From NCBI GenBank assembly GCA_032622095.1, contig CP136062.1, positions 154,374,875 through 154,438,874 on the forward strand: 64,000 bases of DNA, written 5' to 3'. The notes beneath the pieces are model-generated. The model was not told the origin of the DNA. It did not search any database and was given only the letters and a program-made list of their open reading frames with translations. A program made the position numbers and the translations under genes. This DNA comes from Siphonodentalium dalli (Eukaryota; Mollusca; Scaphopoda; Gadilida; Siphonodentaliidae). Numbering within the stretch: position 1 is the stretch's first letter; the number at the start of each line of letters is the position of its first letter. This document shows, piece after piece, positions 40,080 through 59,756 of the stretch.

Positions 40080-40460
40080 AACTACATAGCCGTGATCTCC
40101 CAAGCCGTGAATGCCAACAACAATTACTCTTTTAGGGACGGGTACCATTAGTTAATATAGCCGTGAATGCCAACAACAACGACATAATGCCAACAACAAC
40201 GACTCTTTTAGGGACGGGTACCATTAGTTAATATAGCCGTGTTGGCCACCCAAGCCGTGGATGCCAACAACAACGACAAGCCGTAAATGCCAACAACAAC
40301 GACAAGCCGTGAATGCCAACAACAACGACATTGTTGGCATACCTCTTTTAGGGACGGGTGCCAACAACAACAAGCGGGAACTACATAGCCGTGATCTCCC
40401 AAGCCGTGAATGCCAACAACAATGAATATAGCCGTGAATGCCAACAACAACGACGGGCGG
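40080..40460 (+). repeat. Interspersed 20-30 bp minisatellite AAGCCGTGAATGCCAACAAC
   Basis: The phrase, usually followed by AACGAC, recurs about eight times, mixed with a TCTTTTAGGGACGGGTACCA unit. The same ATGCCAACAACAACGAC phrase appears in downstream Helitron units near 48660, 54416 and 55470. Confidence 0.75.
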
Positions 40461-40900
40461 TGTAGATACGCTTGTCGTGGCCGTAGTATAAGTCATCGAA
40501 TAATAATTATCTCCTACAAACCTAACTAACACTCATTGTATACCGGCATTCGCCAAATATTGATAACATGTACACCATTATATATTGACTAACACCAAAA
40601 TCAAAACATAGGTTAACGGGCTCACGCCCCAGATGGCTCCTTGGGCGCTGATGAATGTCCTCGGGCGGCAATATACGCTTGTCGTGCCGTAGTATAAGCC
40701 GTCGAATAATTATCTCCTCCAAAATCAACTAACACTACTTAATTGACAACACTTCCTTTACAGAAATTGTGTATATATATACAATAATTTTACAAAACCT
40801 ATTAAAAACAACCCAAAAAAATCACAAAAACCAAAAAAATAAATATATTCACTGTGTATATATATACATTCACATATACCATTATACTATACTATACTAT

Positions 40901-40963
40901 GGGGGGTTTGGGATTTCTCCCGGGAAGATTTGAAAGGGGCGGAACCCCTCTCCTACAACCCAC
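40901..40963 (-). terminator. Double-hairpin gene tail (T1, after P1)
   Basis: Minus strand: GAGAGGGG-TTCCG-CCCCTTTC (8-bp stem), then GGGA-GAAA-TCCC. Role as RNA 3'-end structure or terminator is inferred from its position after each gene copy. Confidence 0.5.
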
Positions 40964-41453
40964 TTATGAATTTTAATTTGAAACATGGTATGGTATAACA
41001 TAAGCATGAATCGGTGAGATGAAAATGAAAATGATCTATTTTTAGTTTTGTTGGCTTCTTTTTTCTTCGGTTTGGTATTGCTGTTGTTGATGCTGTGGCT
41101 GTGTCTGAGTCGGAGCTGGATTTTTCTTCTGTTTTTTCCTGCTTTCCCCGTGGAGGAGGGTTTTTAGACAAGTATATATTCTCTTCTTGAATTTTGATGA
41201 TGCCTTGTGCGGGGTCCAGCTCGTCTGGTCCTCTGTATATATGGTGATCCCTCAGCAGGAAGAAATCGCGGTTGGTGATTGGATATTTCATTCCTGCTGC
41301 GTGGTGTTCGAGAATCGCATCTTTGAGGTCATCACGCTCTTGTTCGACCTGATGTGGTGTTGGCGACGCCGGCTTCACCTCGTACTTCGGCGTCGGAGGG
41401 ACGGAGATTGTGCTATCCGCCCCTGGTGGAGAAAGGCTGGGTGGTGTTTCCAT
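40953..41453 (-). CDS. Unrecognised protein, HHAAG/FFLLRD domain (gene copy P1, second part)
   Basis: This follows the P1 first part in the same frame after a single TAG. It has a Pro-rich start (METPPSLSPPG), then a compact domain with HHAAGMKYPITNRDFFLLRD, then a Lys/Ser-rich tail (RRKKKPTK). A second copy of the domain (HHAAGTTYHLTKYEFFLLRD) lies at 44760-45032. I do not recognise the family. The charged, low-complexity ends suggest a nucleic-acid-binding or structural protein, but that is inference. A conserved hairpin tail lies just downstream (40901-40963). Confidence 0.5.
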   Translation of the reverse strand: METPPSLSPPGADSTISVPPTPKYEVKPASPTPHQVEQERDDLKDAILEHHAAGMKYPITNRDFFLLRDHHIYRGPDELDPAQGIIKIQEENIYLSKNPPPRGKQEKTEEKSSSDSDTATASTTAIPNRRKKKPTKLKIDHFHFHLTDSCLCYTIPCFKLKFISGL

Positions 41454-41963
41454 CTAAACGTCGAAACTGGCGGCAGGAACATCGGGGGTGGTATCCGCGT
41501 CCCTGTCTCCGCTTGTCTCTGTGACGACAGCAGGGATCTCCGGCAGATCTACGGAGTCCCTGCTAGCTGGTCTGATGTCACCTGTCTCCATGCAGGCCGG
41601 GTCGTCTGTGCGTCTCTCAGACAACTCCGGCCTACCGGCTGTGACACTGGATGGTTGAACCACACGGGGAGGGGTGACCGGCAGATCAACAGTCACCCCC
41701 TTCTTTTTCTTCCATTTCGCCCGTCTGGCTGCGTCCCTTCTCCTTCGAGCTGGCGTCTTTCTCTTAGGAGGCTCCTCTTTCATGGTACGGCTGGTCTTGG
41801 CGTTCCTGCTCCGGGTAGAAGATCTCTGGATACCAGCATCCTCCGTCCGGAATTCAACACAAAGAACCAAATAGCCCCTGTTAGACTGGAGACTCCAGCT
41901 AACAGTGTCCACTATTTGAGATCTTTGTATTGCAGCTAACGCGGCGTCAGGGATTAGCTCCAT
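41454..41963 (-). CDS. Unrecognised basic protein (gene copy P1, first part)
   Basis: It starts MELIPDAALAAIQ at 41963, with a likely folded N-terminus (VDTVSWSLQ, YLVLCVEFRTE), then a strongly basic segment PPKRKTPARRRRDAARRAKW, then an acidic half with TPDVPAASFDV before TAG. The same start and basic block occur in P2 and P3. P-x-x-RRD-x-x-R-x-x-W segments recall ORF1/gag-like proteins of some invertebrate retroelements, which is weak evidence. The upstream 160 bp (41964-42130), with TCAGATTTTATTTGGC and CGTCGGTACGAGTG on the minus strand, is conserved among the copies. Confidence 0.55.
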   Translation of the reverse strand: MELIPDAALAAIQRSQIVDTVSWSLQSNRGYLVLCVEFRTEDAGIQRSSTRSRNAKTSRTMKEEPPKRKTPARRRRDAARRAKWKKKKGVTVDLPVTPPRVVQPSSVTAGRPELSERRTDDPACMETGDIRPASRDSVDLPEIPAVVTETSGDRDADTTPDVPAASFDV

Positions 41964-42165
41964 TGTCCATCGCTCTAAGCCTAATCCAATACCGTCTCAC
42001 TCGCCGGCATCAGCACGAGGGCGGTTGCTTCCAATAAAGGTTACAGACCGCACAACTCACTCGTACCGACGCTCTGACAAAAAGGAACTAATTAAGCCAA
42101 ATAAAATCTGACTTGTTCGCTCCACCTTCTGCCAGAGTCACATATACCATTTTTTGTTTTACTAT

Positions 42166-42230
42166 GGGGGGGTTTGGGATTTGACCAGGGAGGATTTGAA
42201 AGGGGCGGCACCCCTTTCCTACAACCAACT
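42166..42230 (-). terminator. Double-hairpin gene tail (T2, after P2)
   Basis: Minus strand: GAAAGGGG-TGCCG-CCCCTTTC, a perfect 8-bp stem. The second hairpin is weak here. Confidence 0.5.
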
Positions 42231-42378
42231 GTTGAATTTAATGAGATACATGTTATGGTAATACATAAGCATGAATTGGTGAAGGTGAAAAGGAAATGAT
42301 CTAGACATAATTATTTCTTTTTCTTGGCTTTCTTTTTTTTCTGTGTTGGAGTTCTGTTTGTTGTTGTTGTTGTTGGAG

Positions 42379-43179
42379 TTATGTTTGCTGTTGTTGTTGT
42401 TGGAGCACAGATGCCTGTTCTTCTTCCCGTTGTTGTTGATGGAGCGTAGCATCATTGTCAGAATATATATCTGCCATTGCTCTCTCATGTCTTTGTTGTT
42501 CTTCATGTCTTTGTTGTTTTTCTTCTACCAACCATCTCATGGTGTCTGCGATTAACTCCTCGTTTGAACGGGTGGCGGCTGTGCTGGTGTTGTCGCTAGT
42601 GATGGTAGAGCTGGGGGACACCGAGATGTGTTGGTAATCCGGTGTCCGAGGTGTAAAACTATCCAGTTCCACGTCGAAGCTGGCGGCAGGAACATCTGGG
42701 GTGGTATCCACGTCCCTGTCTCCGCTAGCCTCGACGACGACAGCAGGGACCTCCGGCAGATCCACGGAATCCCTGCTAGCTGGTACTATGTCGTCAGTCT
42801 CCATGCAGGTCGAGTCGTCTGGGCGTCTCTCAGACAACTTCGACCCGCCGGCTATGACTTTGGACGGCTGAGCCAGACGGGGAGGGGCGACTGGCCGATC
42901 TACAGTCACCCCCTTCTGCTTCTTCCATTTAGCCCATCTGGCAGCGTCCCTTCTCTTCTGTGAGGGTGTTTTTCTTTTGGGAGGCCCCTTCTTCATGTTA
43001 CAGCGGGTCTTGGCGTCGTTCCTGTTCGCAGCAGAAGACTTCTGGGTACCAGCTTCTTCTGTCCTGAATTCTACACAGAGAACCAGAGAGCCCCTGTTAG
43101 CTTGTAGTGTCCAACTAACAGCATCAACTAACCGGCTTTTCTGTATAGCGGCCAACGCGGCTTCAGGGATTAGCTCCAT
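42379..43179 (-). CDS. Unrecognised basic protein (gene copy P2), poly-Gln end
   Basis: 266 codons from MELIPEAALAAIQ at 43179. It has the basic block KRKTPSQKRRDAARWAKW, the acidic middle with TPDVPAASFDVELDSFTPRT, a Glu/Gln-rich probable coiled coil (EEKQQRHEEQQRHERAMAD), and a poly-Gln end. A CAA/TTG microsatellite (about 42358-42405) shifts the reading frame: another frame there continues as a Lys-rich tail ending in a stop, as in P3, so the present C-terminus is probably a slippage product. It is tandem with P1 (same strand). Confidence 0.55.
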   Translation of the reverse strand: MELIPEAALAAIQKSRLVDAVSWTLQANRGSLVLCVEFRTEEAGTQKSSAANRNDAKTRCNMKKGPPKRKTPSQKRRDAARWAKWKKQKGVTVDRPVAPPRLAQPSKVIAGGSKLSERRPDDSTCMETDDIVPASRDSVDLPEVPAVVVEASGDRDVDTTPDVPAASFDVELDSFTPRTPDYQHISVSPSSTITSDNTSTAATRSNEELIADTMRWLVEEKQQRHEEQQRHERAMADIYSDNDATLHQQQREEEQASVLQQQQQQT

Positions 43180-43703
43180 AATCCGTCCCGAGCCTAATCC
43201 AAAACCATCTCAGTCTGGCGTCTCCACGAGGGCAGTTACAACCTGGGTCGCGACCGCACAACTCACTCGTGTAGACGCTCTAGCTGACGAGGAACTAATT
43301 AAGCCAAATAAAATCTGACTTGTTCGCTCCACTCGCAGCTTCACCCCACCCCGCTCCATTGTCTATCGTCGTTCATATTTATATCAACCAATAAACTACA
43401 ACAAGAACATGAAGATGATTTCACTTACGCCCGCGCCACGGGAACCCATACAAATTGGGGGGAAAACGCAATCATTTCTATAACAGGCACTACCCGCCAC
43501 CCGTATAATAACAAATTCACTTTCAGAAGCTAGAATCTGCTCTGGCAGCAAGTGGAGCGAACAAGTCAGATTTTATTTGGCTCTATTAGTTCCTTGTATT
43601 GTCAGAGCGTCGGTACGAGTGATTTGAGCGGTCTGTAACCTTAATTGGAAGCAACCGCCCTCGTGCTGATGCCGGCGAGTGAGACGGTTTTGGATTAGGC
43701 TTA

Positions 43704-44584
43704 GTGCGACGGACAATGGAGCTAATCCCTGACGCCGCGTTAGCAGCAATAGAGAGATCTCAAATTGCGGATATTGTTAGCTGGAATCTCCAGTCTAACA
43801 GAGGCTATTTGACTCTCTGTGTTGAATTTCGGACGGAAGATGCTGGAAACCAGAGACCTTCTACCCGGAGCAAGAAAGCCAAGACCAGCCGTATACCATG
43901 AAAGAAGAGCCTCCTAAGAAAAAGACGCCAGCTCGAAGGAGAAGGGACGCAGCCAGACGGGCGAAATGGAAGAAGAAGATGGGGGCGACCGTTGATCGAC
44001 CGGTCACCCCTCCCCGTGTGGCTCAGCCGTCCAAAGTCATAGCCGGCGGGTCGAAGTTGTCTGAGAGACGCCCAGACGACTCGACCTGCATGGACACTGA
44101 CGACATTGAACCAGCTAGCAGGGACTCCGTGGATCTGCCGGAGGTCCCTGCTGTCGTCGTCGAAGCTTGCGGAGACAGGGACGTGGATACCACCCCAGAT
44201 GTTCCTGCCGCCAGCTTCGACGTGGAACTGGATAGCTATACACCTCGGACACCGGATTACCAACACACCCCGGTGTCCTCCAGCTCCACCAGCACCAGCA
44301 CAGCCAACACCCTCTCTCATGAAGAGTATACGGCCCTTGCCCGTTCTGTGGAAAAGACTATCGCTGAGTCAAACAGAGTTATGGAAGAACAACGATTACG
44401 AACCGAACAAACCGAGAAAGAAAATGTCCGATGGATGAAAGAAAATGCTCAGCGACAGAAAGAATTACAACAGGAGCAGACAGAACGGGATAAAAGATAC
44501 GAAGCTGCGATGCAACAATCCCAACAAACACTAGATGAAGCTCAACAACGGAAAACAAAGAAACCAAAGAAGAAAACATCATAA
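43704..44584 (+). pseudogene. Unrecognised basic protein (gene copy P3), split by a 2-bp insertion
   Basis: The start MELIPDAALAAIERS at 43710 matches P1 and P2. The first frame ends at 43901 because two extra bases lie in CGTATACCATG where P1 has CGTACCATG. The second frame opens at 43898 and runs 228 codons through the basic block (KKKTPARRRRDAARRAKW), TPDVPAASFDVELDSYTPRT, a Glu/Gln-rich coiled-coil-like region, and the end KTKKPKKKTS. P3 is inverted relative to P2; the two share a divergent upstream region (43180-43703) containing inverted copies of AGTGGAGCGAACAAGTCAGA. Confidence 0.6.
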
Positions 44585-44673
44585 TATGTCTAGACCATCT
44601 TTTTTTTTTTTTGTATTCATCTCATGCTATGTCGAAGTGTCATAACTTTCCATAGCCCCTATATCACTTCACA

Positions 44674-44740
44674 AGTGGGTTGTAGGAGAGGGGTTCCGCC
44701 CCTTTCAAATCTTCCCTGGGCTCACTCCCAAAACCCCTAA
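44674..44740 (+). terminator. Double-hairpin gene tail (T3, after P3)
   Basis: GAGAGGGG-TTCCG-CCCCTTTC, then GGG-CTCACT-CCC, followed by AATAAA motifs. Confidence 0.5.
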
Positions 44741-44749
44741 TAAATAAAA

Positions 44750-45032
44750 AATAAAGCTAGAATCTACCATCACCGCCCCTCCGACGCTGAGGTATGAGGA
44801 GAGGCCGGCGTCGTCCATCACCAAAGAACGGATGGAAAAAGAACGAGAAATAATCAAAACAACGATTGTAACACACCACGCAGCAGGAACGACTTACCAT
44901 CTTACCAAATACGAATTCTTCCTGCTGCGGGATCGCCAGCTCTACTTACATCGAGACAAAAGTGAGAGAACATCTGGAACAGTAACAGTCAATCCAACAC
45001 AGACATATGGCAAATTCACACTGGCCTATTAG
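44750..45032 (+). pseudogene. Partial HHAAG/FFLLRD-domain gene fragment
   Basis: The frame is open from about 44760 (STITAPPTLRYEERPASS) through HHAAGTTYHLTKYEFFLLRD to a stop at 45032. It is homologous to the P1 second part (STISVPPTPKYEVKPASP and HHAAG...FFLLRD), yet it lies downstream of the P3 tail as a separate unit with its own hairpin tail (45143-45203). Confidence 0.55.
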
Positions 45033-45142
45033 AAGCACCCACGACCACCAGAAAAAAAGAAAATGATCATAAAGAATCTCCAAATTGCTATCTTTTTTTC
45101 ATTTTTTTTCTTATATTATTTCTCTAATAAAAGCAAAATCAT

Positions 45143-45203
45143 GAGGGATTAAGGAAAGGGCCCTTCGGCCCTTTCGACAATCCCGGGGCTAGCTACCCCA
45201 AAC
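45143..45203 (+). terminator. Double-hairpin gene tail (T4)
   Basis: GAAAGGGCC-CTTC-GGCCCTTTC (9-bp stem), then GGGG-CTAGCTA-CCCC, followed by an A-rich tract. Confidence 0.5.
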
Positions 45204-45232
45204 AACCCAATTAAAAAAAAAACCTAGCGATC

Positions 45233-45586
45233 ATGTCATACACATTCCACTCACCTAACAACACCAACCAAGTGGGATCCGGCTTGAAAACCGACCCAGC
45301 ACTAGCTTGGGTGGGGTGCAGGAACTACAGACCCATAAGTGGTCATAGCTCTCAACGAGTTAGGAGCGGCATATACCAAAATATGCTCGTCCCGCTTGCC
45401 GCTCTGACATTTCTTCGGGAGCAGGACGGCTCACGGCTCAAGAACACACTGACATGTACTAAATGTATACATAATTTTAACAAAATAAAGAAATTACCAA
45501 AACAATATATAAAACCAAAAAAATCTATTGAATGTAATCATATATATATCTGTACAAAACCATTCACATATATCGTCAACTATTAA
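45233..45586 (+). CDS. Hypothetical small protein
   Basis: 117 codons from MSYTFHSPNNTNQVGSG, with VGCRNYRPISGHSSQRV, LAALTFLREQDGSRLKN and a CTKCIHN motif, then a low-complexity Lys/Ile end. It follows directly after a hairpin tail and precedes another (46101-46160), the same spacing as the other gene copies, which is the main reason to list it. No family recognised. Confidence 0.3.
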   Translation: MSYTFHSPNNTNQVGSGLKTDPALAWVGCRNYRPISGHSSQRVRSGIYQNMLVPLAALTFLREQDGSRLKNTLTCTKCIHNFNKIKKLPKQYIKPKKSIECNHIYICTKPFTYIVNY

Positions 45587-46100
45587 AGTCTATCTTGTAC
45601 ATTATCAATCAGATTTACTTCATTTATCAAAACCCAAATAATTCTGCACATAAAATTGTCCGAGTCTTCACTTACGCCCGTGCTATGGGATGTAGGGCGG
45701 TCCATACAGTAACAACGAAATAACCAAAACATACTGTCTCTGCGCATTTGGCTATAGCAGAATCGCGGTATGATGGTGCATTGAATCACATTGAATCACA
45801 CGCTCTGCCTTGCGGTTGTTTTTTAAATAACTAACAAACTAACACTATTTTAAATTATAACACGGGCCTCGTTCCTTTTTCAGCGCACCATATGACACGC
45901 TCAGCTTAACCATATATTAAAGGGACCCACCGGGACACCCCTCACACCCTCACACCCCATATTAAAGCTCGTGGGCTCTTCCCCAAATAATCCATCCAAT
46001 TAATTCAATCAAAGAGATAAGATTAATTCAATTGTGTCCGCTTTTGCCGTGTTCAGACATGACTATTTTCTGTGTGCTATATCTCCAACAACAACAAACC

Positions 46101-46160
46101 GTGGGGTGAAGGAGAAGATCACTCGATCTTTTCGACCATCCCGGGCGCTTCGCGCCCATC
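46101..46160 (+). terminator. Double-hairpin gene tail (T5)
   Basis: GAGAAGATC-ACTC-GATCTTTTC, then GGGCGC-TTC-GCGCCC. Stem bases differ from T1-T4, yet pairing is kept. Confidence 0.5.
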
Positions 46161-46607
46161 TACTCACTTTATTATTACAACAACGACATATGTTATTTTC
46201 TCTTTACCGCAACGGCCAAATGCATTTATCTTGATTAAAAAAGGCAGAAAAATGCGTGTTGTCTGATTGTCTGATTGTTATGTCTGTCGTTCCTAGGAAC
46301 GGGGGACATTTTCATCGGAATCTTTTAGGGACGGGTACTGTCTGATTCTTATGTCTTCTTCATCTTAATCGGGTAAAATAAGGTCTAATCGGGTAAAATA
46401 TTGAAAATCCAAAAATTAAATTAAAAAATTAATCAAAAAATTTAATTCAAAAATCCAGTAAATTAAAAATGCACAATTAACTCATGTTATAAAAAATAAA
46501 TTAATATTAACTCATTGAAAAAAAAAATTTAATTCAAATATTAATTTAAAAAATCAAAAATTGTCATGTTTCTGACAAACGCCGCCAGTGGCGGGCTAAC
46601 CTGCTAG

Positions 46608-48102
46608 TCTACTATATATTTTGAGAACTACGTAAATATATGTGTAAATATATGTGTATATATATTTGTCCTCTATAGACTCGAAAACGGCTGGACCGAT
46701 TGGGCTCAAACTTCCCATCTAAGGGTAAAATGCCACGGGAATGGTCGTCGCTGTGTTTTGGAGAAGCTCCCAGCACCCATTCTCCCCAGTCACAAAAACG
46801 GCACTGTGGGGGTTAATCGCGCTGATAGTTAAAGAGCGTTCGTATCCGCAGTGTCGTTGATAAAGAGCGTCTATATACACGACGAGTATAAATACGGTTC
46901 CATTGACCGTCTCGAGACGAAATTTCGTACTTAATTTCGTACTTAGGGGTTCCAAAGAACGGGGGAGATTTGTATCGGGTCAGTTTTTCCGCGCGAGGAG
47001 ACCTTGACCTTCAAACGGGTACCCACAAATGATCTATATGTGCGTGTCCTTTATAGACTCGAACCGATTGAGCTCAAACTTGCTAACTATGGGTACTTTT
47101 GTGCGGGAAGTGTCATGGACGGGTCAAATTGTGACCCATACCTGACCTTGAAAATGATCGATTCAAGGTCAAATCGTATAAAACTGGCGGATTTCGACGA
47201 ATTTTTACACCTAAGTGCAGCACACGTGTCTCGGAAGCTGTTGCAATTGCTTTTTCGAACAAAGCCATGAAACGAACCACACTCTTATGACTAATGTGTA
47301 GGTTTTCTACACAAAATGTGTAGCCCTGCTACACAATCATTATTCAATTTTGATCTTAAACATATTTGTGTAGTATATGTGTAGTTTAATATTCGTACAC
47401 ATATTGTGTAACAATTTTTACACATAAATGGGTAAATTTTTACACATTTATACACAACTGTGTGTATAAAATCAACACATATCCCTTACACATTTTGTGT
47501 AGGTTCTTACACACACAGTTCGTAGACAAGAAATGCAAGTTCAGTACTCCGACCTGTGGGTATAGTATTAAAGATATATGCAGATTTATATGTTAAAACT
47601 TACATGGCGCATAGTGGGATGTAGTATTTTGTTCTGTACTGTGAGTTTTTGCTTTGAATGAACAAACCAGGGTCGAGGCGTGATTGCATAATATTAGTAT
47701 TATTACAACAATCATAACAAGAGTCTAAGCGCAGTAATCGCCATGAAAGTTTTAACAAATAAATCCTCATATACTATTAATACTATACCCACACATTGGA
47801 ATTCCGAACTTACATCCTTGTCTACGATCGCTGTAGATTGTATTCCAAAAAATATACTCAAACAATATGGCCGTCACGTAGCAGACTATGAAACTGAAGG
47901 CATCGCAATGCGCATGCTCGACGTTCTTACACAATTGCGTGAAACAAAATATACACATTATGTGTAGAACGGCACTGGTCAATGTATTTGTATGTAAAAC
48001 TACAAATTGCTATGTGTATTAACCGGGTTTACACATTTGATGTGTAATAGCTTCTACACATTAGTTATAAGAGTGCACGCCAGTGGCGGGCTAACCTGCT
48101 AG
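46608..48102 (+). mobile_element. Helitron unit 1, with a nested TIR element
   Basis: It starts TCTACTATATATTTTGAGAA directly after the CTAG of unit 0 and ends GCCAGTGGCGGGCTAACCTG-CTAG at 48099-48102. It contains the phrase GGACCGATTGGGCTCAAACT typical of the family. Removing the nested element at about 47280-48076 leaves roughly 700 bp. Confidence 0.77.
47280..48076. mobile_element. Nested MITE with 22-bp TIRs, rich in TGTGTA/TACACA
   Basis: The left end CACTCTTATGACTAATGTGTAG is inverted at the right with one mismatch (CACTCTTATAACTAATGTGTAG). The first 250 bases and the right end are dense in ACACA/TGTGT motifs. CA flanks both ends; a 2-bp duplication is possible. A 74-codon frame (47743-47967) inside is unrecognised. 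The CACTC terminus hints at CMC-type elements, unproven. Confidence 0.7.
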
Positions 48103-49240
48103 TCTATCTATACTATATATTTTGAGACTTCGTATATATGTACTTCATAGAATCCAAAACGCGTGTAAAGATTGAGCTCAAACTTCCTATGTAAGTGTCA
48201 AATCTCACCGACACGACCGTGGTCGCGGTTTAGGGAAGCTCAGAGCACCCGTTCTCCAATCTCAAATCACCGCAAAGGCACGGCGGGGGTTAATCAAGTG
48301 ATTATTTAATGAGCGTTTGTTTTTGACGCATCTCTATAAAGAGCGTCTGTTTCCCATTCAACGTTATTCGCATCTGCAGAGTTATACGGGAACGCAAACG
48401 TTATCGCTCGAAATTTATTCCCTGCGAGCACGGATGGCGCGCTTTGTTTTTACAGTATATATACCGAAATCATCCCACATAATCACGAATATAGCATCAG
48501 ATTTCTCCCCAGATATACCGTTATAAAGCTACTGGAATCTGCCAATCTACGGGAAATTCCAGGGAATGCTGATTGAGCTCAAACTTGCTACCTACGGGAA
48601 GTGTCATATATATGAGTGTGTCCTTTATAGACTCTAACCGATTGAGCTCAAACTTGCCCAAGCCGTAAATATCAACAACAACGATATTGCTACCTACGGG
48701 GAGCAACGTTATTAGCATCTGCAGAATTATGCAGAGAGAAAGTGCTTTCCTATTTTTAGAACGCAACACATGTTTACGTCGCGTTGGTGATTGGGGTTCA
48801 CAACGGGGTTAATTGACTGTCCGCTCTTTGCGACGATGAGGTTCACGGCGGGGACTATTGACCAAACACTCACAATTTCGTCTTTTGCATCAGATACCAA
48901 CACCTCGACCGATCGGGACGAAACTTGGTACGTGAGTGTAGTTTGACCAGGTGGTCGTCGCTGTCGTATTGGCGAGCCCGTGCGACGCCCGTGCAGCGCA
49001 TGCGCAGACGAGATATCGGAAACGGGTGGAGCTATCGACTTGAAATTTGGTATGTGAATGTATCTTGCCCCGGATACGAATTTTATCGGGTCGCCGAGCC
49101 GTGCGACGCCAGATTCGCGCATGCGTGAAATTTGGTTTTTGAGTAGCCCGGTCCTGTACGGGGTTACATTGAAAAACTAAAATTAATGGATCGACCAAAG
49201 CCATCGGACGAATGCCGCCAGTGGCGGGCTAACCTGCTAG
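48103..49240 (+). mobile_element. Helitron unit 2
   Basis: It starts TCTATCTATACTATATATTT and ends with hairpin CCGCC-AGT-GGCGG and CTAG (49237-49240). It carries a single good GCGCATGCGCAG site and a second, decayed one (GCGCATGCGTGA). Confidence 0.87.
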
Positions 49241-50568
49241 TCTATCTATACTATATATTTTGAGACTTCGTATATATGTATGTATGTACTTCATAGAATC
49301 CAAAACGCGTGTACATATTGAGCTCAAACTTCCTATGTAAGTGTCAAATCTCACCGACACGACCGTGGTCGCAGTTTAGAGAAGCTCAGAGCACCCGTTC
49401 TCCAATCTCAAATCACCGCAAAGGCACGGCGTAGGTTAATCAAGTGATTATTTAATGAGCGTTTGTTTTTGACGCATCTCTATAAAGAGCGTCTGTTTGC
49501 CATTCAACGTTATTTGCATCTGCAGAGAGATATACGGAACATACATTAAATTTAAAAAACATTTGTTTCTGACCAACCCTGCGAGCACGGATGGCGCGCT
49601 TTGTTTTTACAGTATATAGTTATATACCGAAATCATCCCAGATAATCACGAATATAGCATCAGATTTCTCCCCAGATAATACCGTTATAAAGCTACTGGA
49701 ATCTGCCAATATACGGGAAATTCCAGGGAATGCCGATTGAGCTCAAACTTGCTACCCACGGGAAGTGTCATATATATGAGTGTGTCCTTTATAGACTCGA
49801 ACCGATTGAGCTCAAACTTGCTAAATAAGAAAATAGCACCCAAGCCGTAAATATCAACAACAACGATATTGCTACCTAAGGGGAGCAACGTTATTAGCAT
49901 CTGCAGAATTATGCAGAGAGAAAGTGCTTTCCTATTTTTAGAACGCAACACATGTTTACGTCGCGTTGGTGATTGAGGTTCTCAACGGGGTTAATTGACT
50001 GTCCGCTCTTTGCGACGATGAGGTTCACGGCGGGGACTATTGACCAACACTCACAATTTCGTCTTTTGCATCAGATACCAACACCTCGACCGATCGGGAC
50101 AAAACTTGGTACGTGAGTGTAGTTTGACCAGGTGGTCGACCCTGTCGTATTGGCGAGCCCGTGCGACGCCCGTGCAGCGCATGCGCAGACGAGATATCGG
50201 AAACGGGTGGAGCTATCGACTTGAAATTTGGTATGTGAATGTATCTTGCGCCGGGTACAAATTTTATCGGGTCGCCGAGCCCGTGCGACGCCCGTGCAGC
50301 GCATGCGCAGACGAGATCTAGGAAACGGGTGGAGCTATCGATTTGAAATTTGCTATGTGAATGTATCTTGCACCGGGTACAAATTTTATCGGGTCGCCGA
50401 GCCCGTGCGACGCCAGCTTCGCGCATGCGCAGACCAGATCTCGGAAACGGGTGGAGCTACCGGGTACAATTTTTTCTTATTGAAACGCGTGGAGCTAAAA
50501 ATTAAAAACAAATATATAAAAAAATGTCATGTTTCGGACAAGCCGCCGGTGGCGGGCTAACCTGCTAG
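49241..50568 (+). mobile_element. Helitron unit 3 (full type)
   Basis: 1,328 bp. Head TCTATCTATACTATATATTT; tail CCGCC-GGT-GGCGG...CTAG at 50565-50568. Three 122-bp sub-repeats with GCGCATGCGC at 50177, 50299 and 50421. Confidence 0.88.
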
Positions 50569-51106
50569 TCTCATATATATTTTGAAGACCTCTGTCTGTA
50601 TGTTTGTCTGTCTGTCATTAATACAAATTTACGATTCTCGACCGATCGGAACGAAACTTGGTACGTGTGTGTAGTTTGACCAGGCGGTGAACGTTGTCGT
50701 ATTGGCGAGCCCGTGCGGCGCCCGCTTCGCGCATGCGCAGACGAGATCTCGGAAACGGGTGGAGCTATCGACTTGAAATTTACTATGTGAATGTATCTTG
50801 CCCCGGATACGAATTTTATCGGTGTCGCCGAGCCCGGGCCGTGCGACACCAGCTTCGCGCATGCGCAGACGAGATCTCGGAAACGGGTGGAGCTATCGAC
50901 TTGAAATTTGCTATGTGAATGTATCTTGCCCCGGATACGAATTTTATCGGGTCGCCGAGCCCGTGCGACGCCAGCTTCGCGCATGCGCAGACGAGATCTC
51001 GGAAACGGGTGCTATCGACTTGAAATTTGGTTTTTGAAACGGGTGGAGCTATCGACTTGAAATTTGGTTTTTGAATAGCCCGGACAACGTCGGGCTCATC
51101 GGCTAG
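50569..51106 (+). mobile_element. Helitron unit 4, variant head and tail
   Basis: 538 bp. The head TCTCATATATATTTTGAAGA is followed by a (GTCT)n tract. The tail uses a different hairpin, GCCCG-GACAACGT-CGGGC, then TCATCGG-CTAG at 51103-51106. It has three sub-repeats with GCGCATGCGCAG. A different subfamily sits inside the array. Confidence 0.78.
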
Positions 51107-52424
51107 TACTATATATTTTGAGACTTCGTATATATGTATGTATGTACTTCATAGAATCCAAAACGCGTGTAAAGATTGAGCTCAAACTTCCTATGTCAGT
51201 GTCAAATCCCACCGACACGACCGTGGTCGCAGTTTAGAGAAGCTCAGAGCACCCGTTCTCCAATCTCAAATCACCGCAAAGGCACGGCGTGGGTTAATCA
51301 AGTGATTATTTAATGAGCGTTTGTTTTTGACGCATCTCTATAAAGAGCGTCTGTTTGCCATTCAACGTTATTTGCATCTGCAGAGAGATATACGGAACAT
51401 ACATTAAATTTAAAAAACATTTGTTTCTGACCAACCCTGCGAGCACGGATGGCGCGCTTTGTTTTTACAGTATATAGTTATATACCGAAATCATCCCAGA
51501 TAATCACGAATATAGCATCAGATTTCTCCCCAGATATACCGTTATAAAGCTACTGGAATCTGCCAATCTACGGGAAATTCCAGGGAATGCCGATTGAGCT
51601 CAAACTTGCTACCCACGGGAAGTGTCATATATATGAGTGTGTCCTTTATAGACTCGAACCGATTGAGCTCAAACTTGCTAAATAAGAAAATAGCCCCAAG
51701 CCGTAAATATCAACAACAACGATATTGCTACCTACGGGGAGCAACGTTATTAGCATCTGCAGAATTATGCAGAGAGAAAGTGCTTTCCTATTTTTAGAAC
51801 GCAACACATGTTTACGTTGCGTTGGTGATTGAGGTTCACAACGGGGTTAATTGACTGTCCGCTCTTTGCGACGATGAGGTTCACGGCGGGGACTATTGAC
51901 CAACACTCACAATTTCGTCTTTTGCATCAGATACCAACACCTCGACCGATCTGGACGAAACTTGGTACGTGAGTGTAGTTTGACCAGCTGGTCGTCGCTG
52001 TCGTATTGGCGAGCCCGTGCGACGCCCGTGCAGCGCATGCGCAGACGAGATATCGGAAACGGGTGGAGCTATCGACTTGAAATTTGGTATGTGAATGTAT
52101 CTTGCGCCGGGTACAAATTTTATCGGGTCGCCGAGCCCGTGCGACGCCCGTGCAGCGCATGCGCAGACGAGATCTAGGAAACGAGTGGAGCTATCGACTT
52201 GAAATTTGCTATGTGAATGTATCTTGCACCGGGTACAAATTTTATCGGGTCGCCGAGCCCGTGCGACGCCAGCTTCGCGCATGCGCAGACCAGATCTCGG
52301 AAACGGGTGGAGCTACCGGGTACAAATTGTACTTATTGAAACGCGTGGAGCTAAAAATTAAAAAAATATATATAAAAAAATGTCATGTTTCGGACAAGCC
52401 GCCGGTGGCGGGCTAACCTGCTAG
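51107..52424 (+). mobile_element. Helitron unit 5 (full type)
   Basis: 1,318 bp; head TACTATATATTTTGAGACTT (the leading TC reduced to T), tail CCGCC-GGT-GGCGG...CTAG. It recurs almost unchanged as unit 9. Confidence 0.87.
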
Positions 52425-53743
52425 TACTATATATTTTGAGACTTCGTATATATGTATGTATGTACTTCATAGAATCCAAAACGCGTGTAAAGATTGAGCT
52501 CAAACTTCCTATGTCAGTGTCAAATCCCACCGACACGACCGTGGTCGCAGTTTAGAGAAGCTCAGAGCACCCGTTCTCCAATCTCAAATCACCGCAAAGG
52601 CACGGCGTGGGTTAATCAAGTGATTATTTAATGAGCGTTTGTTTTTGACGCATCTCTATAAAGAGCGTCTGTTTGCCATTCAACGTTATTTGCATCTGCA
52701 GAGAGATATACGGAACATACATTAAATTTAAAAAACATTTGTTTCTGACCAACCCTGCGAGCACGGATGGCGCGCTTTGTTTTTACAGTATATAGTTATA
52801 TACCGAAATCATCCCAGATAATCACGAATATAGCATCAGATTTCTCCCCAGATATACCGTTATAAAGCTACTGGAATCTGCCAATATACGGGAAATTCCA
52901 GGGAATGCCGATTGAGCTCAAACTTGCTACCCACGGGAAGTGTCATATATATGAGTGTGTCCTTTATAGACTCGAACCGATTGAGCTCAAACTTGCTAAA
53001 TAAGAAAATAGCCCCCAAGCCGTAAATATCAACAACAACGATATTGCTACCTACGGGGAGCAACGTTATTAGCATCTGCAGAATTATGCAGAGAGAAAGT
53101 GCTTTCCTATTTTTAGAACGCAACACATGTTTACGTCGCGTTGGTGATTGAGGTTCACAACGGGGTTAATTGACTGTCCGCGCTTTGCGACGATGAGGTT
53201 CACGGCGGGGACTATTGACCAACACTCACAATTTCGTCTTTTGCATCAGATACCAACACCTCGACCGATCGGGACGAAACTTGGTACGTGAGTGTAGTTT
53301 GACCAGTTGGTCGTCGCTGTCGTATTGGCGAGCCCGTGCGACGCCCGTGCAGCGCATGCGCAGACGATATATCGGAAACGGATGGAGCTATCGACTTGAA
53401 ATTTGGTATGTGAATGTATCTTGCGCCGGGTACAAATTTTATCGGGTCGCCGAGCCCGTGCGACGCCAGCTTCGCGCATGCGCAGACGAGATCTAGGAAA
53501 CGGGTGGAGCTATCGACTTGAAATTTGCTATGTGAATGTATCTTGCACCGGGTACAAATTTTATCGGGTCGCCGAGCCCGTGCGACGCCAGCTTCGCGCA
53601 TGCGCAGACCAGATCTCGGAAACGGGTGGAGCTACCGGGTACAAATTTTTCTTATTGAAACGCGTGGAGCTAAAAATTAAAACAAAATATATAAAAAAAT
53701 GTCATGTTTCGGACAAGCCGCCGGTGGCGGGCTAAGCTGCTAG
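52425..53743 (+). mobile_element. Helitron unit 6 (full type)
   Basis: 1,319 bp. It has the private tail variant GCTAAGCTG-CTAG, also found in unit 10, where other units have GCTAACCTG-CTAG. Confidence 0.87.
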
Positions 53744-53768
53744 TCTATACTATATATTTTGAGACTTC

Positions 53769-53805
<37 letters not shown>

Positions 53806-54799
53806 ATAGAATCCAAAACGCGTGTACAGATTGAGATCAAATTTCGTATGTAAGTGTAAAATCCCACCGACACCGCCGTAGTCGCGGTTTAGAGAAGCTC
53901 AGAGCACCCGTTCTCCAATCTCAAATCACCGCAAAGGCACGGCGGGGGTTAATCAAGTGATTATTTAATGAGCGTTTGTTTTTGACGCATCTCTATAAAG
54001 AGCGTCTGTTTCCCATTCAACGTTATTCGCATCTGCAGAGTTATACGGGAACGCAAACGTTATCGCTCGAAATTTATTCCCTGCGAGCACGGATGGCGCG
54101 CTCTGTTTTTACAGTATATAATTATATACCGAAATCATCCCAGATAATCACGAATATAGCATCAGATTTCTCCCCAGATATACCGTTATAAAGCTACTGG
54201 AATCTGCCAATCTACGGGAAATTCCAGGGAATGCCGATTGAGCTCAAACTTGCTACCTACGGGAAGTGTCATATATATGAGTGTGTCCTTTATAGACTCT
54301 AACCGATTGAGCTCAAACTTGCTAAATAAGAAAATAGTCCCCAAGCCGTAAATATCAACAACAACGATATTACTAACTACACGTTTTCGGCAATGTGAAA
54401 GTTTTCGGGGAGCCGTGATGCCAACAACAACGACCCGAAGACAGATTTCCCGACGGGAAGCGTTTGTTTTAAATTCAATGCAATGTTATCGTAGAGAGAT
54501 TTCACGAAACAAAGAATGCGTTGTCTGTCGTTCCTAGGAAGGGGGGATTTCTACGGGTAAATTTTTCCGCCAGAAACAAAAAAATTAATTAAAACAATTT
54601 AATAAAAACAATTTAAAATTAAAAAAAATTAACAATAAAATAACAATTCAGAAACGAAATATATTAAATTTAAAAAACATTAAATTCATATTCAAAAATA
54701 AAAAACAAAAATAAATAAAAACAAAATAATTACAAAAATGTCATGTTTCTGAAACAAAGCCATGGGACGAATGCCGCCAGTGGCGGGCTAACCTGCTAG
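53744..54799 (+). mobile_element. Helitron unit 7 (short type, GT-rich head)
   Basis: The head is followed by a (GT)n tract and the variant AGATTGAGATCAAATTTCGT, both shared with unit 11. The second half lacks the 122-bp sub-repeats and has an AT-rich tail instead. Confidence 0.85.
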
Positions 54800-55915
54800 T
54801 CTATACTATATATTTTGAGACTTCGTATATATGTGTGTGTGTACTTCATAGAATCCAAAACGCGTGTACAGATTGAGCTCAAACTTCCTATGTAAGTGTC
54901 AAATCCCACCGACACGACCGTGGTCGCGGTTTAGAGAAGCTCAGAACACCCGTTCTCCAATCTCAAATCACCGCAAAGGCACGGCGGGGGTTAATCAAGT
55001 GATTATTTAATGAGCGTTTGTTTTTGACGCATCTCTATAAAGAGCGTCTGTTTGCCATTCAACGTTATTTGCATCTGCAGAGAGATATACGGTACATACA
55101 TTAAATTAAAAAAACATTTGTTTCTGACCAACCCTGCGAGCACGGATGGCGCGCTTGTTTTTACAGTATATAGTTATATACCGAAATCATCCCAGATAAT
55201 CACGAATATAGCATCAGATTTCTCCCCAGATATACCGTTATAAAGCTACTGGAATCTGCCAATCTACGGGAAATTCCAGGGAATGCCGATTGAGCTCAAA
55301 CTTGCTACCCACGGGAAGTGTCATATATATGAGTGTGTCCTTTATAGACTCGAACCGATTGAGCTCAAACTTGCTAAATAAGAAAATAGCCCCCAAGCCG
55401 TAAATATCAACAACAACGATATTACTAAATACACGTTTTCGGCAATGTGAGAGTTTTCGGGGAGCCGTGATGCCAACAACAACGACCGAAGCCCTGAATG
55501 CCAACAACAGATTCAATGCAATGTTATCTATTATGCAGAGAGATTTCACGACATTACGACGGGTACGGCAGACTCAAAATATTATGCAGACAGATTTCCC
55601 GACGGGAAGCGTTTGTTTTAAATTCAATGCAATGTTATCGTAGAGAGATTTCACGAAACAAAGAATGCGTTGTCTGTCGTTCCTAGGAAGGGGGGATTTC
55701 TACGGGTAAATTTTTCCGCCAGAAACAAAAAAATTAATTAAAACAATTTACAATTTAATTAAAACAATTTAAAATTAAAAAAAAGTAACAATAAAAAAAC
55801 AATTCAGAAACAAAATATATTAAATTTAAAAAACATTAAATTCATATTCAAAAATGTCATGTTTCTGAAACAAAGCCATGGGACGAATGCCGCCAGTGGC
55901 GGGCTAACCTGCTAG
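54800..55915 (+). mobile_element. Helitron unit 8 (short type)
   Basis: Like unit 7 it lacks the 122-bp sub-repeats and ends in an A/T-rich stretch before CCGCC-AGT-GGCGG...CTAG (55912-55915). It contains two GCCAACAACAACGAC-type phrases. Confidence 0.85.
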
Positions 55916-57235
55916 TACTATATATTTTGAGACTTCGTATATATGTATGTATGTACTTCATAGAATCCAAAACGCGTGTAAAGATTGAGCTCAAACTTCC
56001 TATGTCAGTGTCAAATCTCACCGACACGACCGTGGTCGCAGTTTAGAGAAGCTCAGAGCACCCGTTCTCCAATCTCAAATCACCGCAAAGGCACGGCGTG
56101 GGTTAATCAAGTGATTATTTAATGAGCGTTTGTTTTTGACGCATCTCTATAAAGAGCGTCTGTTTGCCATTCAACGTTATTTGCATCTGCAGAGAGATAT
56201 ACGGAACATACATTAAATTAAAAAAACATTTGTTTCTGACCAACCCTGCGAGCACGGATGGCGCGCTTTGTTTTTACAGTATATAGTTATATACCGAAAT
56301 CATCCCAGATAATCACGAATATAGCATCAGATTTCTCCCCAGATATACCGTTATAAAGCTACTGGAATCTGCCAATCTACGGGAAATTCCAGGGAATGCC
56401 GATTGAGCTTAAACTTGCTACCCACGGGAAGTGTCATATATATGAGTGTGTCCTTTATAGACTCGAACCGATTGAGCTCAAACTTGCTAAATAAGAAAAT
56501 AGCCCCCCAAGCCGTAAATATCAACAACAACGATATTGCTACCTACGGGGAGCAACGTTATTAGCATCTGCAGAATTATGCAGAGAGAAAGTGCTTTACT
56601 ATTTTTAGAACGCAACACATGTTTACGTCGCGTTGGTGATTGAGGTTCACAACGGGGTTAATTGACTGTCCGCTCTTTGCGACGATGAGGTTCACGGCGG
56701 GGACTATTGACCAACACTCACAATTTCGTCTTTTGCATCAGATACCAAAACCTCGACCGATCTGGACGAAACTTGGTACGTGAGTGTAGTTTGACCAGTT
56801 GGTCGTCGCTGTCGTATTGGCGAGCCCGTGCGACGCCCGTGCAGCGCATGCGCAGACGAGATATCGGAAACGGGTGGAGCTATCGACTTGAAGTTTGGTA
56901 TGTGAATGTATCTTGCGCCGGGTACAAATTTTATCGGGTCGCCGAGCCCGTGCGACGCCCGTGCAGCGCATGCGCAGACGAGATCTAGGAAACGGGTGGA
57001 GATATCGACTTGAAATTTGCTATGTGAATGTATCTTGCGCCGGGTACAAATTTTATCGGGTCGCCGAGCCCGTGCGACGCCAGCTTCGCGCATGCGCAGA
57101 CCAGATCTCGGAAACGGGTGGAGCTACCGGGTACAAATTGTACTTATTGAAACGCGTGGAGCTAAAAATTAAAAAAATATATATACAAAAATGTCATGTT
57201 TCGGACAAGCCGCCGGTGGCGGGCTAACCTGCTAG
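55916..57235 (+). mobile_element. Helitron unit 9 (full type, copy of unit 5)
   Basis: 1,320 bp, offset from unit 5 by 4,809 bases. Three GCGCATGCGCAG sites. Confidence 0.87.
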
Positions 57236-58554
57236 TACTATATATTTTGAGACTTCGTATATATGTATGTATGTACTTCATAGAATCCAAAACGCGTGTA
57301 AAGATTGAGCTCAAACTTCCTATGTCAGTGTCAAATCCCACCGACACGACCGTGGTCGCAGTTTAGAGAAGCTCAGAGCACCCGTTCTCCAATCTCAAAT
57401 CACCGCAAAGGCACGGCGTGGGTTAATCAAGTGATTATTTAATGAGCGTTTGTTTTTGACGCATCTCTATAAAGAGCGTCTGTTTGCCATTCAACGTTAT
57501 TTGCATCTGCAGAGAGATATACGGAACATACATTAAATTTAAAAAACATTTGTTTCTGACCAACCCTGCGAGCACGGATGGCGCGCTTTGTTTTTACAGT
57601 ATATAGTTATATACCGAAATCATCCCAGATAATCACGAATATAGCATCAGATTTCTCCCCAGATATACCGTTATAAAGCTACTGGAATCTGCCAATATAC
57701 GGGAAATTCCAGGGAATGCCGATTGAGCTCAAACTTGCTACCCACGGGAAGTGTCATATATATGAGTGTGTCCTTTATAGACTCGAACCGATTGAGCTCA
57801 AACTTGCTAAATAAGAAAATAGCCCCCAAGCCGTAAATATCAACAACAACGATATTGCTACCTACGGGGAGCAACGTTATTAGCATCTGCAGAATTATGC
57901 AGAGAGAAAGTGCTTTCCTATTTTTAGAACGCAACACATGTTTACGTCGCGTTGGTGATTGAGGTTCACAACGGGGTTAATTGACTGTCCGCTCTTTGCG
58001 ACGATGAGGTTCACGGCGGGGACTATTGACCAACACTCACAATTTCGTCTTTTGCATCAGATACCAACACCTCGACCGATCGGGACGAAACTTGGTACGT
58101 GAGTGTAGTTTGACCAGTTGGTCGTCGCTGTCGTATTGGCGAGCCCGTGCGACGCCCGTGCAGCGCATGCGCAGACGAGATATCGGAAACGGATGGAGCT
58201 ATCGACTTGAAATTTGGTATGTGAATGTATCTTGCGCCGGGTACAAATTTAATCGGGTCGCCGAGCCCGTGCGACGCCCGTGCAGCGCATGCGCAGACGA
58301 GATCTAGGAAACGGGTGGAGCTATCGACTTGAAATTTGCTATGTGAATGTATCTTGCACCGGGTACAAATTTTATCGGGTCGCCGAGCCCGTGCGACGCC
58401 AGCTTCGCGCATGCGCAGACCAGATCTCGGAAACGGGTGGAGCTACCGGGTACAAATTTTTCTTATTGAAACGCGTGGAGCTAAAAATTAAAAAAAAATA
58501 TATAAAAAAATGTCATGTTTCGGGCAAGCCGCCGGTGGCGGGCTAAGCTGCTAG
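57236..58554 (+). mobile_element. Helitron unit 10 (full type, copy of unit 6)
   Basis: 1,319 bp, offset from unit 6 by 4,811 bases, with the same GCTAAGCTG tail variant. Confidence 0.87.
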
Positions 58555-59756
58555 TCTATACTATATATTTTGAGACTTCGTATATGTGTGTGTGTGTGTG
58601 TGTGTACTTCATAGAATCCAAAACGCGTGTACAGATTGAGATCAAATTTCGTATGTAAGTGTAAAATCCCACCGACACCGCCGTAGTCGCGGTTTAGGGA
58701 AGCTCAGAGCACCCGTTCTCCAATCTCAAATCACCGCAAAGGCACGGCGGGGGTTAATCAAGTGATTATTTAATGAGCGTTTGTTTTTGACGCATCTCTA
58801 TAAAGAGCGTCTGTTTCCCATTCAACGTTATTCGCATCTGCAGAGTTATACGGGAACGCAAACGTTATCGCTCGAAATTTATTCCCTGCGAGCACGGATG
58901 GCGCGCTCTGTTTTTACAGTATATACCTTTGGTATATACCGAAATCATCCCAGATAATCACGAATATAGCATCAGATTTCTCCCCAGATATACCGTTATA
59001 AAGCTACTGGAATCTGCCAATCTACGGGAAATTCCAGGGAATGCCGATTGAGCTCAAACTTGCTACCTACGGGAAGTGTCATATATATGAGTGTGTCCTT
59101 TATAGACTCGAACCGATTGAGCTCAAACTTGCTAAATAAGAAAATAGCCCCCAAGCCGTAAATATCAACAACAACGATATTGCTACCTACGGGGAGCAAC
59201 GTTATTAGCATCTGCAGAATTATGCAGAGAGAAAGTGCTTTCCTATTTTTAGAACGCAACACATGTTTACGTCGCGTTGTTGATTGAGGTTCACAACGGG
59301 GTTAATTGACTGTCCGCTCTTTGCGACGACGAGGTTCACGGCGGGGACTATTGACCAACACTCACAATTTCGTCTTTTGCATCAGATACCAACACCTCGA
59401 CCGATCGGGACCAAACTTGGTATGTGAGTGTAGTTTGACCAGGTGGTCGTCGCTGTCGTATTGACGAGCCCGTGCGACGCCCGTGCAGCGCATGCGCAGA
59501 CGAGATATCGGAAACGGGTGGAGCTATCGACTTGAAATTTGGTATGTGAATGTATCTTGCGCCGGGTACAAATTTTATCGGGTCGCCGAGCCCGTGCGAC
59601 GCCAGCTTCGCGCATGCGCAGACCAGATCTCGGAAACGGGTGGAGCTACCGGGTACAAATTTTTCTTATTGAAACGCGTGAAGCTAAAAATTAAAAAAAA
59701 ATATTTTAAAAATGTCATGTTTCGGACAAGCCGCCGGTGGCGGGCTAACCTGCTAG
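58555..59756 (+). mobile_element. Helitron unit 11 (last; chimeric)
   Basis: The first half follows unit 7 (GT-rich head, AGATTGAGATCAAATTTCGT). The second half follows the full-type units, with two GCGCATGCGCAG sub-repeats. Its CTAG at 59753-59756 is followed by T and non-array sequence. Confidence 0.85.

What the first reader, a model, noticed from the sequence alone, without database searches (positions are those of the whole stretch)
46608..59756. Eleven head-to-tail Helitron units in one tandem array
Each unit starts T(C)TAY..ATATATTTTGAG directly after the previous CTAG, and each ends with a small hairpin plus CTAG. The flanks of the whole run (A before 39737 counting unit 0, T after 59756) fit one A^T insertion. 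Tandem Helitrons are known where termination fails during rolling-circle copying, but an array of this length and regularity in an animal is worth documenting.
Basis: partly seen in the sequence, partly recalled or inferred. Interest (0 to 1): 0.8.

Follow-up and report, generated by a model that had tools for sequence, protein, structure and literature searches.

The report
Helitrons stacking onto their own ends
The tandem array of rolling-circle transposons is real, but it is one of thousands of such junctions in this genome and looks mainly as if new copies repeatedly inserted into the front end of older copies, rather than one runaway rolling-circle copying event.

Summary
The array is real: eleven units (46608-59756) after a 6.87-kb unit (39737-46607), each abutting the next at CTAG|T. 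It is not unique: of 10,907 exact copies of this 3' end in the genome, 4,593 are followed directly by a 5' end.

One rolling-circle read-through explains it poorly. Neighbouring units are mostly unlike (10 of 64 pairs with similarity 0.97 or more), and U4 belongs to another end family.

A footprint points to serial insertion. Many array units start TAC instead of TCTATAC (1,766 directly after CTAG). Of the 21 listed TAC starts preceded by neither CTAG nor TCTA, 20 were read; none is A|TAC at an ordinary flank. In three two-unit loci the missing TCTA lies left of the upstream unit; one has an empty site beside it. Ordinary targets are A^T with a TATA-like core downstream (23 of 27; background 3.9%). 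The element's own 5' end fits that motif.

Best reading: canonical Helitrons whose 5' end doubles as target, with later block duplication. A new variant of known tandem Helitrons. Full-start junctions (CTAG|TCTATAC) remain unexplained.

The parts
39737..46607 (+). U0: 6.87-kb unit, 5' TCTAC, 3' GGCTAACCTGCTAG; carries copies of a high-copy coding repeat
   Evidence: ORFs; repeat family
46608..48102 (+). U1: 1,495 bp, 5' TCTAC
48103..49240 (+). U2: 1,138 bp, 5' TCTATCTATAC (one extra TCTA)
49241..50568 (+). U3: 1,328 bp, 5' TCTATCTATAC (one extra TCTA); about 98% identical to U5, U6, U9, U10
50569..51106 (+). U4: 538 bp, other end family (5' TCTCATATATATTTTGAAG, 3' CGGGCTCATCGGCTAG), the end type of an autonomous element seen in another array
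51107..52424 (+). U5: 1,318 bp, decapitated start TAC (lacks TCTA)
52425..53743 (+). U6: 1,319 bp, decapitated start TAC; 3' variant GCTAAGCTGCTAG
53744..54799 (+). U7: 1,056 bp, 5' TCTATAC; first about 640 bp 97% identical to U11
54800..55915 (+). U8: 1,116 bp, 5' TCTATAC
55916..57235 (+). U9: 1,320 bp, decapitated start TAC; 98.9% identical to U5
57236..58554 (+). U10: 1,319 bp, decapitated start TAC; 99.2% identical to U6 (99.0% to U5); 3' variant GCTAAGCTGCTAG
58555..59756 (+). U11: 1,202 bp, 5' TCTATAC, 3'-most unit; right flank TCCTATATATAATAAC is a TATA-like target
51107..59190 (+). Probable block duplication inside the array: U5/U9, U6/U10 and the 5' halves of U7/U11, offset about 4.81 kb
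   Evidence: start coordinates and identities; shared GCTAAGCTGCTAG 3' ends of U6 and U10

Best explanation
These are canonical Helitrons (mostly non-autonomous) whose arrays grow chiefly by serial insertion into the 5' terminus of a resident copy. The transposase prefers A^T sites with a TATA-like core starting at about +3 to +8 (shown on 27 targets). The element's own 5' end, TCTA^TACTATATATTTTGAG, is such a site and one of the best-scoring in the unit (shown). A new copy landing there leaves CTAG|TAC on its right and pushes TCTA to its left, so a decapitated neighbour and a displaced prefix are made together (shown in three complete two-unit loci). Because the site lies at the resident's 5' end and has a polarity, all units point the same way (inferred). 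Insertion exactly at the resident's 5' border A^TCTATAC would give the full-start junctions (inferred, not shown). Homologous exchange then duplicates blocks, as with U5-U7 and U9-U11 here (inferred from identities). That the transposase is drawn to its own 5' end beyond the TATA preference is inferred from a rough excess.
For: TAC starts occur directly after CTAG 1,766 times. Of the 100 places listed, 21 are preceded by neither CTAG nor TCTA (my tally against the lists); 20 of these 21 were read and none is A|TAC at an ordinary flank. L123, L124 and L125 read flank-A|TCTA|TCTATAC...CTAG|TAC...CTAG|flank. L125 lies in a tandem repeat whose next copy shows the empty site GGGTTA^TGTGTATATAG, so the leading TCTA is element DNA. 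TATAWA begins at +2..+10 (observed +3..+8) in 23 of 27 distinct non-array targets, against 3.9% of 8,742 A^T sites of this window outside the array. A matrix from those 27 targets puts TCTA^TAC first among A^T sites in U3, U8 and U11; the 5' borders of U4 (A^TCTCAT) and U1 (A^TCTAC) rank first of 74 and second of 276, with modest scores. Up to C1:58.29 Mb, units with an extra TCTA are followed within 1.7 kb by a TAC unit in 8 of 24 cases, TCTATAC units with neither CTAG nor TCTA before them in 0 of 25. Neighbours with similarity 0.97 or more: 10 of 64. About 490 times more TAC junctions than random landing on TATA-type A^T sites would give (rough).
Against: Full-start junctions CTAG|TCTATAC are commoner than TAC ones (2,179 against 1,766), and the target matrix scores A^TCTATAC poorly (20% of 3,955 background A^T sites do as well), so the motif does not explain them. 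Neighbours are more alike (medians 0.45-0.47) than units of different arrays (0.28), so local copying is also at work. Prefix book-keeping is not exact everywhere: L127 has two extra TCTA for one TAC unit, L126 a 7-base prefix, L048 five extras for three TAC units, while other stretches, cut at their ends, show fewer extras than TAC units. With seven targets that resemble the 5' end removed, TCTA^TAC falls to rank 4 of 186 (U11), 9 of 210 (U8), 4 of 218 (U3) and 1 of 180 (U2). The neighbour test is only 11 of 18 versus 18 of 47 (p = 0.08) against full-start units, and 8 of 13 versus 0 of 3 (p = 0.2) when units without a listed neighbour are left out. Five of the six two-unit loci were picked because an extra-TCTA unit preceded a TAC unit. 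Only 20 of the genome's 1,807 TAC starts without CTAG or TCTA before them were read.
Confidence: 0.75

Rival explanations
1. Rolling-circle read-through or a circular intermediate makes head-to-tail concatemers that insert in one event at A^T.
For: Full-start junctions CTAG|TCTATAC (2,179) are what a circle joint would give. Some neighbours are near identical (10 of 64 with similarity 0.97 or more, against 1.25% of 800 sampled between-array pairs). Two Rep-domain copies with 1,650-aa open frames lie 8.57 kb apart and a CTAG|TCTCAT joint lies between them.
Against: Most neighbours are dissimilar, including across full-start junctions (median 0.45, 3 of 23 at 0.97 or more). Units of different end families alternate with perfect joints. 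It does not predict TAC starts or displaced TCTA.
Confidence: 0.2
2. Unequal crossing-over or gene conversion alone expanded an initial dimer.
For: U5/U9, U6/U10 and the 5' halves of U7/U11 look like copies at a constant 4.81-kb offset. The array at C1:49.03 Mb shows joints repeated at about 10.59 kb.
Against: Cannot bring in units of other end families, cannot make the first junction, and cannot place the missing TCTA at the outer flank of two-unit loci.
Confidence: 0.1
3. TAC starts reflect an alternative nick site in the donor (slipped 5' end), not decapitation.
For: TAC is also preceded by A within TCTATAC, so a slipped nick would still fit A^T.
Against: None of 20 TAC starts read that lack CTAG or TCTA before them is A|TAC at an ordinary flank. 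It leaves the displaced TCTA in L123-L125 unexplained. The 15 copies with ordinary flanks start at A|TCT, but they were selected for TCTATAC.
Confidence: 0.05
4. Assembly artefact (collapsed or falsely repeated units).
For: No reads were available to test.
Against: The same kind of joint occurs 4,593 times genome-wide, units in one array differ from each other, and small two-unit loci show the same joints.
Confidence: 0.03

Closest known systems
Canonical Helitrons (Helitron1 type)
   Same: 5' TC, 3' CTAG, A^T insertion without target duplication, RepHel protein with PIF1 helicase and no endonuclease domain among its Pfam matches
   Different: Strong TATA-like preference downstream of A^T, and a 5' end that itself fits the target
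Tandem Helitron clusters in Myotis and Bombyx, and maize and bat Helitrons lying directly next to each other (as described in PMC4067079, passages seen)
   Same: Head-to-tail or directly adjacent copies
   Different: There the tandem arrays are thought to come from bypass of the termination signal; here units are mixed and junctions carry insertion footprints
FoHeli self-insertion in Fusarium (PMC5148889, passages seen)
   Same: A copy 2 bp upstream of another copy's 5' end; three copies in tandem in Metarhizium, for which insertion into a 5' end was offered as one of two options
   Different: Single cases in elements that resemble Helitron2; here thousands of junctions, a target motif and displaced-prefix footprints
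Tandem Helitrons of plant centromeres (Xiong 2016, not read; seen only as cited in passages of PMC8268682, and PMC5148889)
   Same: Tandem Helitron units
   Different: Described there as truncated units lacking 3' ends, amplified from a circle; here units of the array keep 3' ends
Double insertion of transposons as a substrate of satellites (McGurk and Barbash 2018, title seen in a reference list; content recalled)
   Same: Repeated insertion at one site gives tandem dimers that exchange can expand
   Different: Here the site is supplied again by the element's own 5' end

Membership tests
Canonical Helitron | 5' TC and 3' CTRR | tested here: met
   TC...CTAG in 8 of 12 units (U0-U4, U7, U8, U11); the other four (U5, U6, U9, U10) end in CTAG but start TA, read here as decapitated
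Canonical Helitron | Insertion between A and T without target duplication | tested here: met
   A before 15 of 15 TCTATAC copies with ordinary flanks (two share one target; the other 5 of the 20 fetched are array joints with altered CTAG or other prefixes); T after in 26 of 27 distinct targets; empty site beside L125. Exceptions: G before L009, L016, L099; A after L070
Canonical Helitron | Hairpin a few bases before the 3' end | tested here: inconclusive
   5-7 bp stems predicted at the 4 ends folded (two of them identical in sequence), but only U4's end folds clearly better than shuffles (11 of 200 as good; the others 43, 61 and 61 of 200)
Canonical Helitron | Autonomous partner with Rep and PIF1-like helicase | tested here: met
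   1,614-aa frame with Helitron_like_N and PIF1 inside another array, in a unit with U4-type ends. No autonomous copy with the GGCTAACCTGCTAG end was identified among the few examined, so the link to the main unit type is inferred
Helentron / Helitron2 | C-terminal endonuclease, T^T insertion | tested here: not met
   No endonuclease among the 6 Pfam families of the one RepHel scanned; A^T flanks
Tandem Helitrons by termination bypass | Neighbouring units are copies of one element | tested here: not met
   As a rule not: 10 of 64 neighbour pairs have similarity 0.97 or more; those ten could still be such cases

The most novel reading that the evidence does not exclude
A self-homing Helitron lineage: the Rep protein uses the same recognition for the donor's 5' nick site and for the target, so resident 5' ends are preferred landing sites, giving unidirectional arrays that grow at their 5' sides and decapitate (perhaps inactivate) residents in turn. 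TATA-like targeting would also place solo copies just upstream of TATA boxes.
Probability: 0.4. Interest if true: 0.75.

Novelty: new variant of a known kind. Interest (0 to 1): 0.6.

Why it matters
How Helitrons choose targets and why they form tandem arrays are open points; in the papers seen, arrays are put down to failed termination or circle replication, with self-insertion raised for single cases. Here an insertion footprint can be read at many junctions in one genome, which makes serial self-insertion and rolling-circle concatemers separable by sequence alone. It also suggests a route from a dispersed transposon to satellite-like arrays.

Tried and rejected
A strict CTAG-plus-start pattern with fixed spacing found nothing in the window because 5' starts vary. 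The fixed-position target matrix does not account for A^TCTATAC junctions. Exact prefix book-keeping per array was tried and holds only roughly. Five of U0's reading frames have no Pfam match at 0.001. Rows dropped: from the target set, array joints and repeats of a target already counted (L005, L015, L018, L060; L124 is the same place as L070); from the neighbour comparison, units outside 350-2,600 bp, so U0 and the autonomous unit; from the neighbour-type test, listed places beyond 97.5 Mb or 58.29 Mb. Literature searches for tandem, self-inserting or TATA-targeting Helitrons (one open-licence library, mostly listings seen) gave only the papers cited; subscription papers are mostly not held, so absence from print is not shown.
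Full report
WHAT IS THERE. The finding is right about anatomy. Twelve units, U0 (39737-46607) and U1-U11 (46608-59756), lie head to tail with no base between them; each joint reads CTAG|T and the outer flanks are A and T. The start motif and the 3' end are far beyond chance (13 matches against 0.95 expected; 11 against 0). The units are not regular: 538 to 1,495 bp without U0, several 5' starts, and U4 has both ends of another family. Six of the twelve (U3, U4, U5, U6, U9, U10) carry inner tandem repeats of 122-128 bp above the score used.

NOT UNIQUE. The window lies at G000:C2:154374875-154438874 of an unnamed 2.23-Gb assembly in 9 contigs. That genome has 10,907 exact copies of the 18-base 3' end (5,400 + 5,507; reversed control 0), and 4,593 places (2,264 + 2,329; control 0) where it is followed by a 5' end within the allowed gap. 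This is a lower bound: of 42 further 3' ends fetched because they lacked that exact joint, 19 are joined to a variant unit start (5 of 20, 14 of 22). Arrays of many units were read at C1:49.03 Mb, 13.72 Mb and elsewhere. An autonomous unit also sits in an array: a 1,614-aa Rep-helicase frame (Helitron_like_N 9.4e-56, PIF1 5.3e-68) lies in a unit with U4-type ends inside the 13.7-Mb array. Three stretches picked between neighbouring Rep-domain matches hold joints CTAG|TCTATTATATAT (L129, L130) or CTAG|TCTCATATAT (L131).

TARGET SITE. A precedes 15 of 15 TCTATAC copies with ordinary flanks (14 distinct targets); the other 5 of the 20 fetched in that set are array joints with altered CTAG or other prefixes. 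Exceptions elsewhere, with G before the start, are L009, L016 and L099. After the 3' end, 26 of 27 distinct non-array targets start with T (L070 with A), and TATAWA begins at +2 to +10 (observed +3 to +8) in 23 of 27, against 3.9% of 8,742 A^T sites of this window outside the array. Repeats of the same target were counted once (L005, L015, L018 and L060 were dropped), and array joints were left out. The window's own right flank, TCCTATATATAATAAC, fits. One locus (L125) lies in a tandem repeat whose next copy shows the empty site GGGTTA^TGTGTATATAG, so insertion there is precise and without duplication.

THE FOOTPRINT. In the main unit type the usual start is TCTATAC. Whole-genome counts for starts followed by ...GACTTC are: TACTATATATT 7,660, of which 4,087 after TCTA and 1,766 directly after CTAG, leaving 1,807. 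TCTATAC follows CTAG 2,179 times and a further TCTA 871 times. In the first 100 places listed the three classes are 53, 26 and 21 (my tally against the lists). Of the 21 others, 20 were read (L013 and L029-L047): 13 are TC|TAC starts of a sister type; five follow altered array joints (L030, L041 and L046 shortly after CTAG; L037 and its copy L038 read CAGCTA|TAC with element-like DNA upstream); two have T before TAC (L029, L039). None is A|TAC at an ordinary flank. So, on this sample, plain TAC starts belong to arrays. The missing TCTA is found elsewhere: three complete two-unit loci read flank-A|TCTA|TCTATAC...CTAG|TAC...CTAG|flank (L123, L124, L125). Taking out the upstream unit on paper gives back one plain solo element. 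L126 has a 7-base prefix before its first unit, a TAC second unit and a third unit starting TAA; L127 has two extra TCTA for one TAC unit; L128 has neither extra nor loss. Five of these six loci were chosen because an extra-TCTA unit preceded a TAC unit, so the set is not a rate.

NEIGHBOUR TESTS. Up to C1:58.29 Mb, units with extra TCTA are followed within 1.7 kb by a TAC unit in 8 of 24 cases; TCTATAC units with neither exact CTAG nor TCTA before them in 0 of 25 (p = 0.0016); full-start array units in 12 of 50. If units without a listed neighbour are left out, the first two become 8 of 13 against 0 of 3 (p = 0.2). Up to 97.5 Mb, against full-start array units, the figures are 11 of 18 versus 18 of 47 (p = 0.08). 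Similarity of neighbouring units (identical bases over the longer unit, so length changes count) has median 0.45 across full-start joints (23) and 0.47 across TAC joints (24); 10 of all 64 pairs, from 18 chosen stretches, reach 0.97. Units of different arrays have median 0.28, and 1.25% of 800 sampled pairs reach 0.97. Concatemers of one unit are therefore not the rule, but local copying does occur.

SELF-TARGETING. A matrix learned from the 27 non-array targets ranks TCTA^TACTATATATT first among A^T sites of U3, U8 and U11; 0.08% of 3,955 A^T sites in window 1-39,000 score as well. The 5' borders of U4 and U1 rank first of 74 and second of 276, with modest scores (3.6% and 2.0% of background as good); the border A^TCTATAC scores poorly (20%). 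After removing seven targets that look somewhat like a 5' end, TCTA^TAC ranks 4 of 186 (U11), 9 of 210 (U8), 4 of 218 (U3) and 1 of 180 (U2), with 1.2% of background as good. Landing at random on TATA-type A^T sites would give about 3.6 TAC joints from 10,907 insertions; 1,766 exist. This is rough: the background comes from one window and duplicated arrays inflate the count. It suggests attraction to the element's own 5' end beyond the motif. A Rep that handles donor nick and target alike, as recalled for the bacterial relatives IS91 and IS608, would do this; that step is inference.

THIS WINDOW. U5, U6, U9 and U10 are decapitated; U2 and U3 carry one extra TCTA each. U5/U9, U6/U10 and the 5' halves of U7/U11 are offset by about 4.81 kb and 97-99% alike, though U5 is as close to U10 as to U9; this fits a block duplication, and if so two decapitations match two displaced prefixes. 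U4, of another end family, sits between U3 and U5, which are 98% alike. The likely order is: U11 or its ancestor first at a TATA-like site, later units added on the 5' side, then block duplication. The order is inferred.

PRIOR WORK. Tandem Helitrons and Helitrons lying next to each other have been reported, the arrays being ascribed to termination bypass (PMC4067079, passages). Insertion into a 5' end was offered as one option for single cases in fungi (PMC5148889, passages). Oyster papers on Helitron-borne satellites (PMC8268682, passages; PMC11136912, passages) treat mainly repeats inside elements, though the second also mentions tandemised entire elements. In a silkworm paper (PMC3789558) the word tandem does not occur in the main text (passages). 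The searches made listed no paper that I recognised as describing TATA-like targeting with displaced-prefix footprints; the library holds only open-licence papers.

VERDICT. A real array, ordinary within its genome, but a clear record of a process that the papers seen raise only for single cases: Helitrons stacking by insertion into their own 5' ends.

Noticed in passing
window 40953-44584: U0 carries related reading frames (two on -, one on + in inverted order) and a further small one on -, none with a Pfam match; one of them (42379-43209) has 140 scored matches in the genome out of 5,215 candidates, so it is a high-copy coding repeat caught or inserted in U0.
   Followed up: partly
window 47280-48070: U1 has an inner stretch rich in TGTGTA/TACACA motifs that I did not see in the other units.
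   Followed up: no
G000:C6:36914596-36934946, C1:114628540-114639087, C2:141795020-141804100: Rep-domain matches lie 8.4-11.4 kb apart in one direction (open frames 1605, 866 and 571 aa; 986 and 1697 aa; twice 1650 aa), with CTAG|T joints in the stretches read between them.
   Followed up: partly
L055:3161-8005: The RepHel frame begins with a run of short peptide repeats (STPRs, Pfam 3e-14), which as far as I recall is unusual before a Rep domain.
   Followed up: no
L009: A copy inserted into an array of 23-bp repeats (TATTATATAAACGCTCATTGTAG), apparently at G^T.
   Followed up: partly
non-array 3' flanks, e.g. L008, L014, L009: Some targets look like promoter TATA boxes (TATATAAAAGG, AATATAAAAGG, TATATAAACG); a link to promoters was not tested.
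   Followed up: no
G000:C1:49026300-49055500 (L021-L023): Joints of a multi-unit block recur about 10.59 kb apart within a long array, and unit lengths of 1301, 1118 and 1301 bp recur.
   Followed up: no
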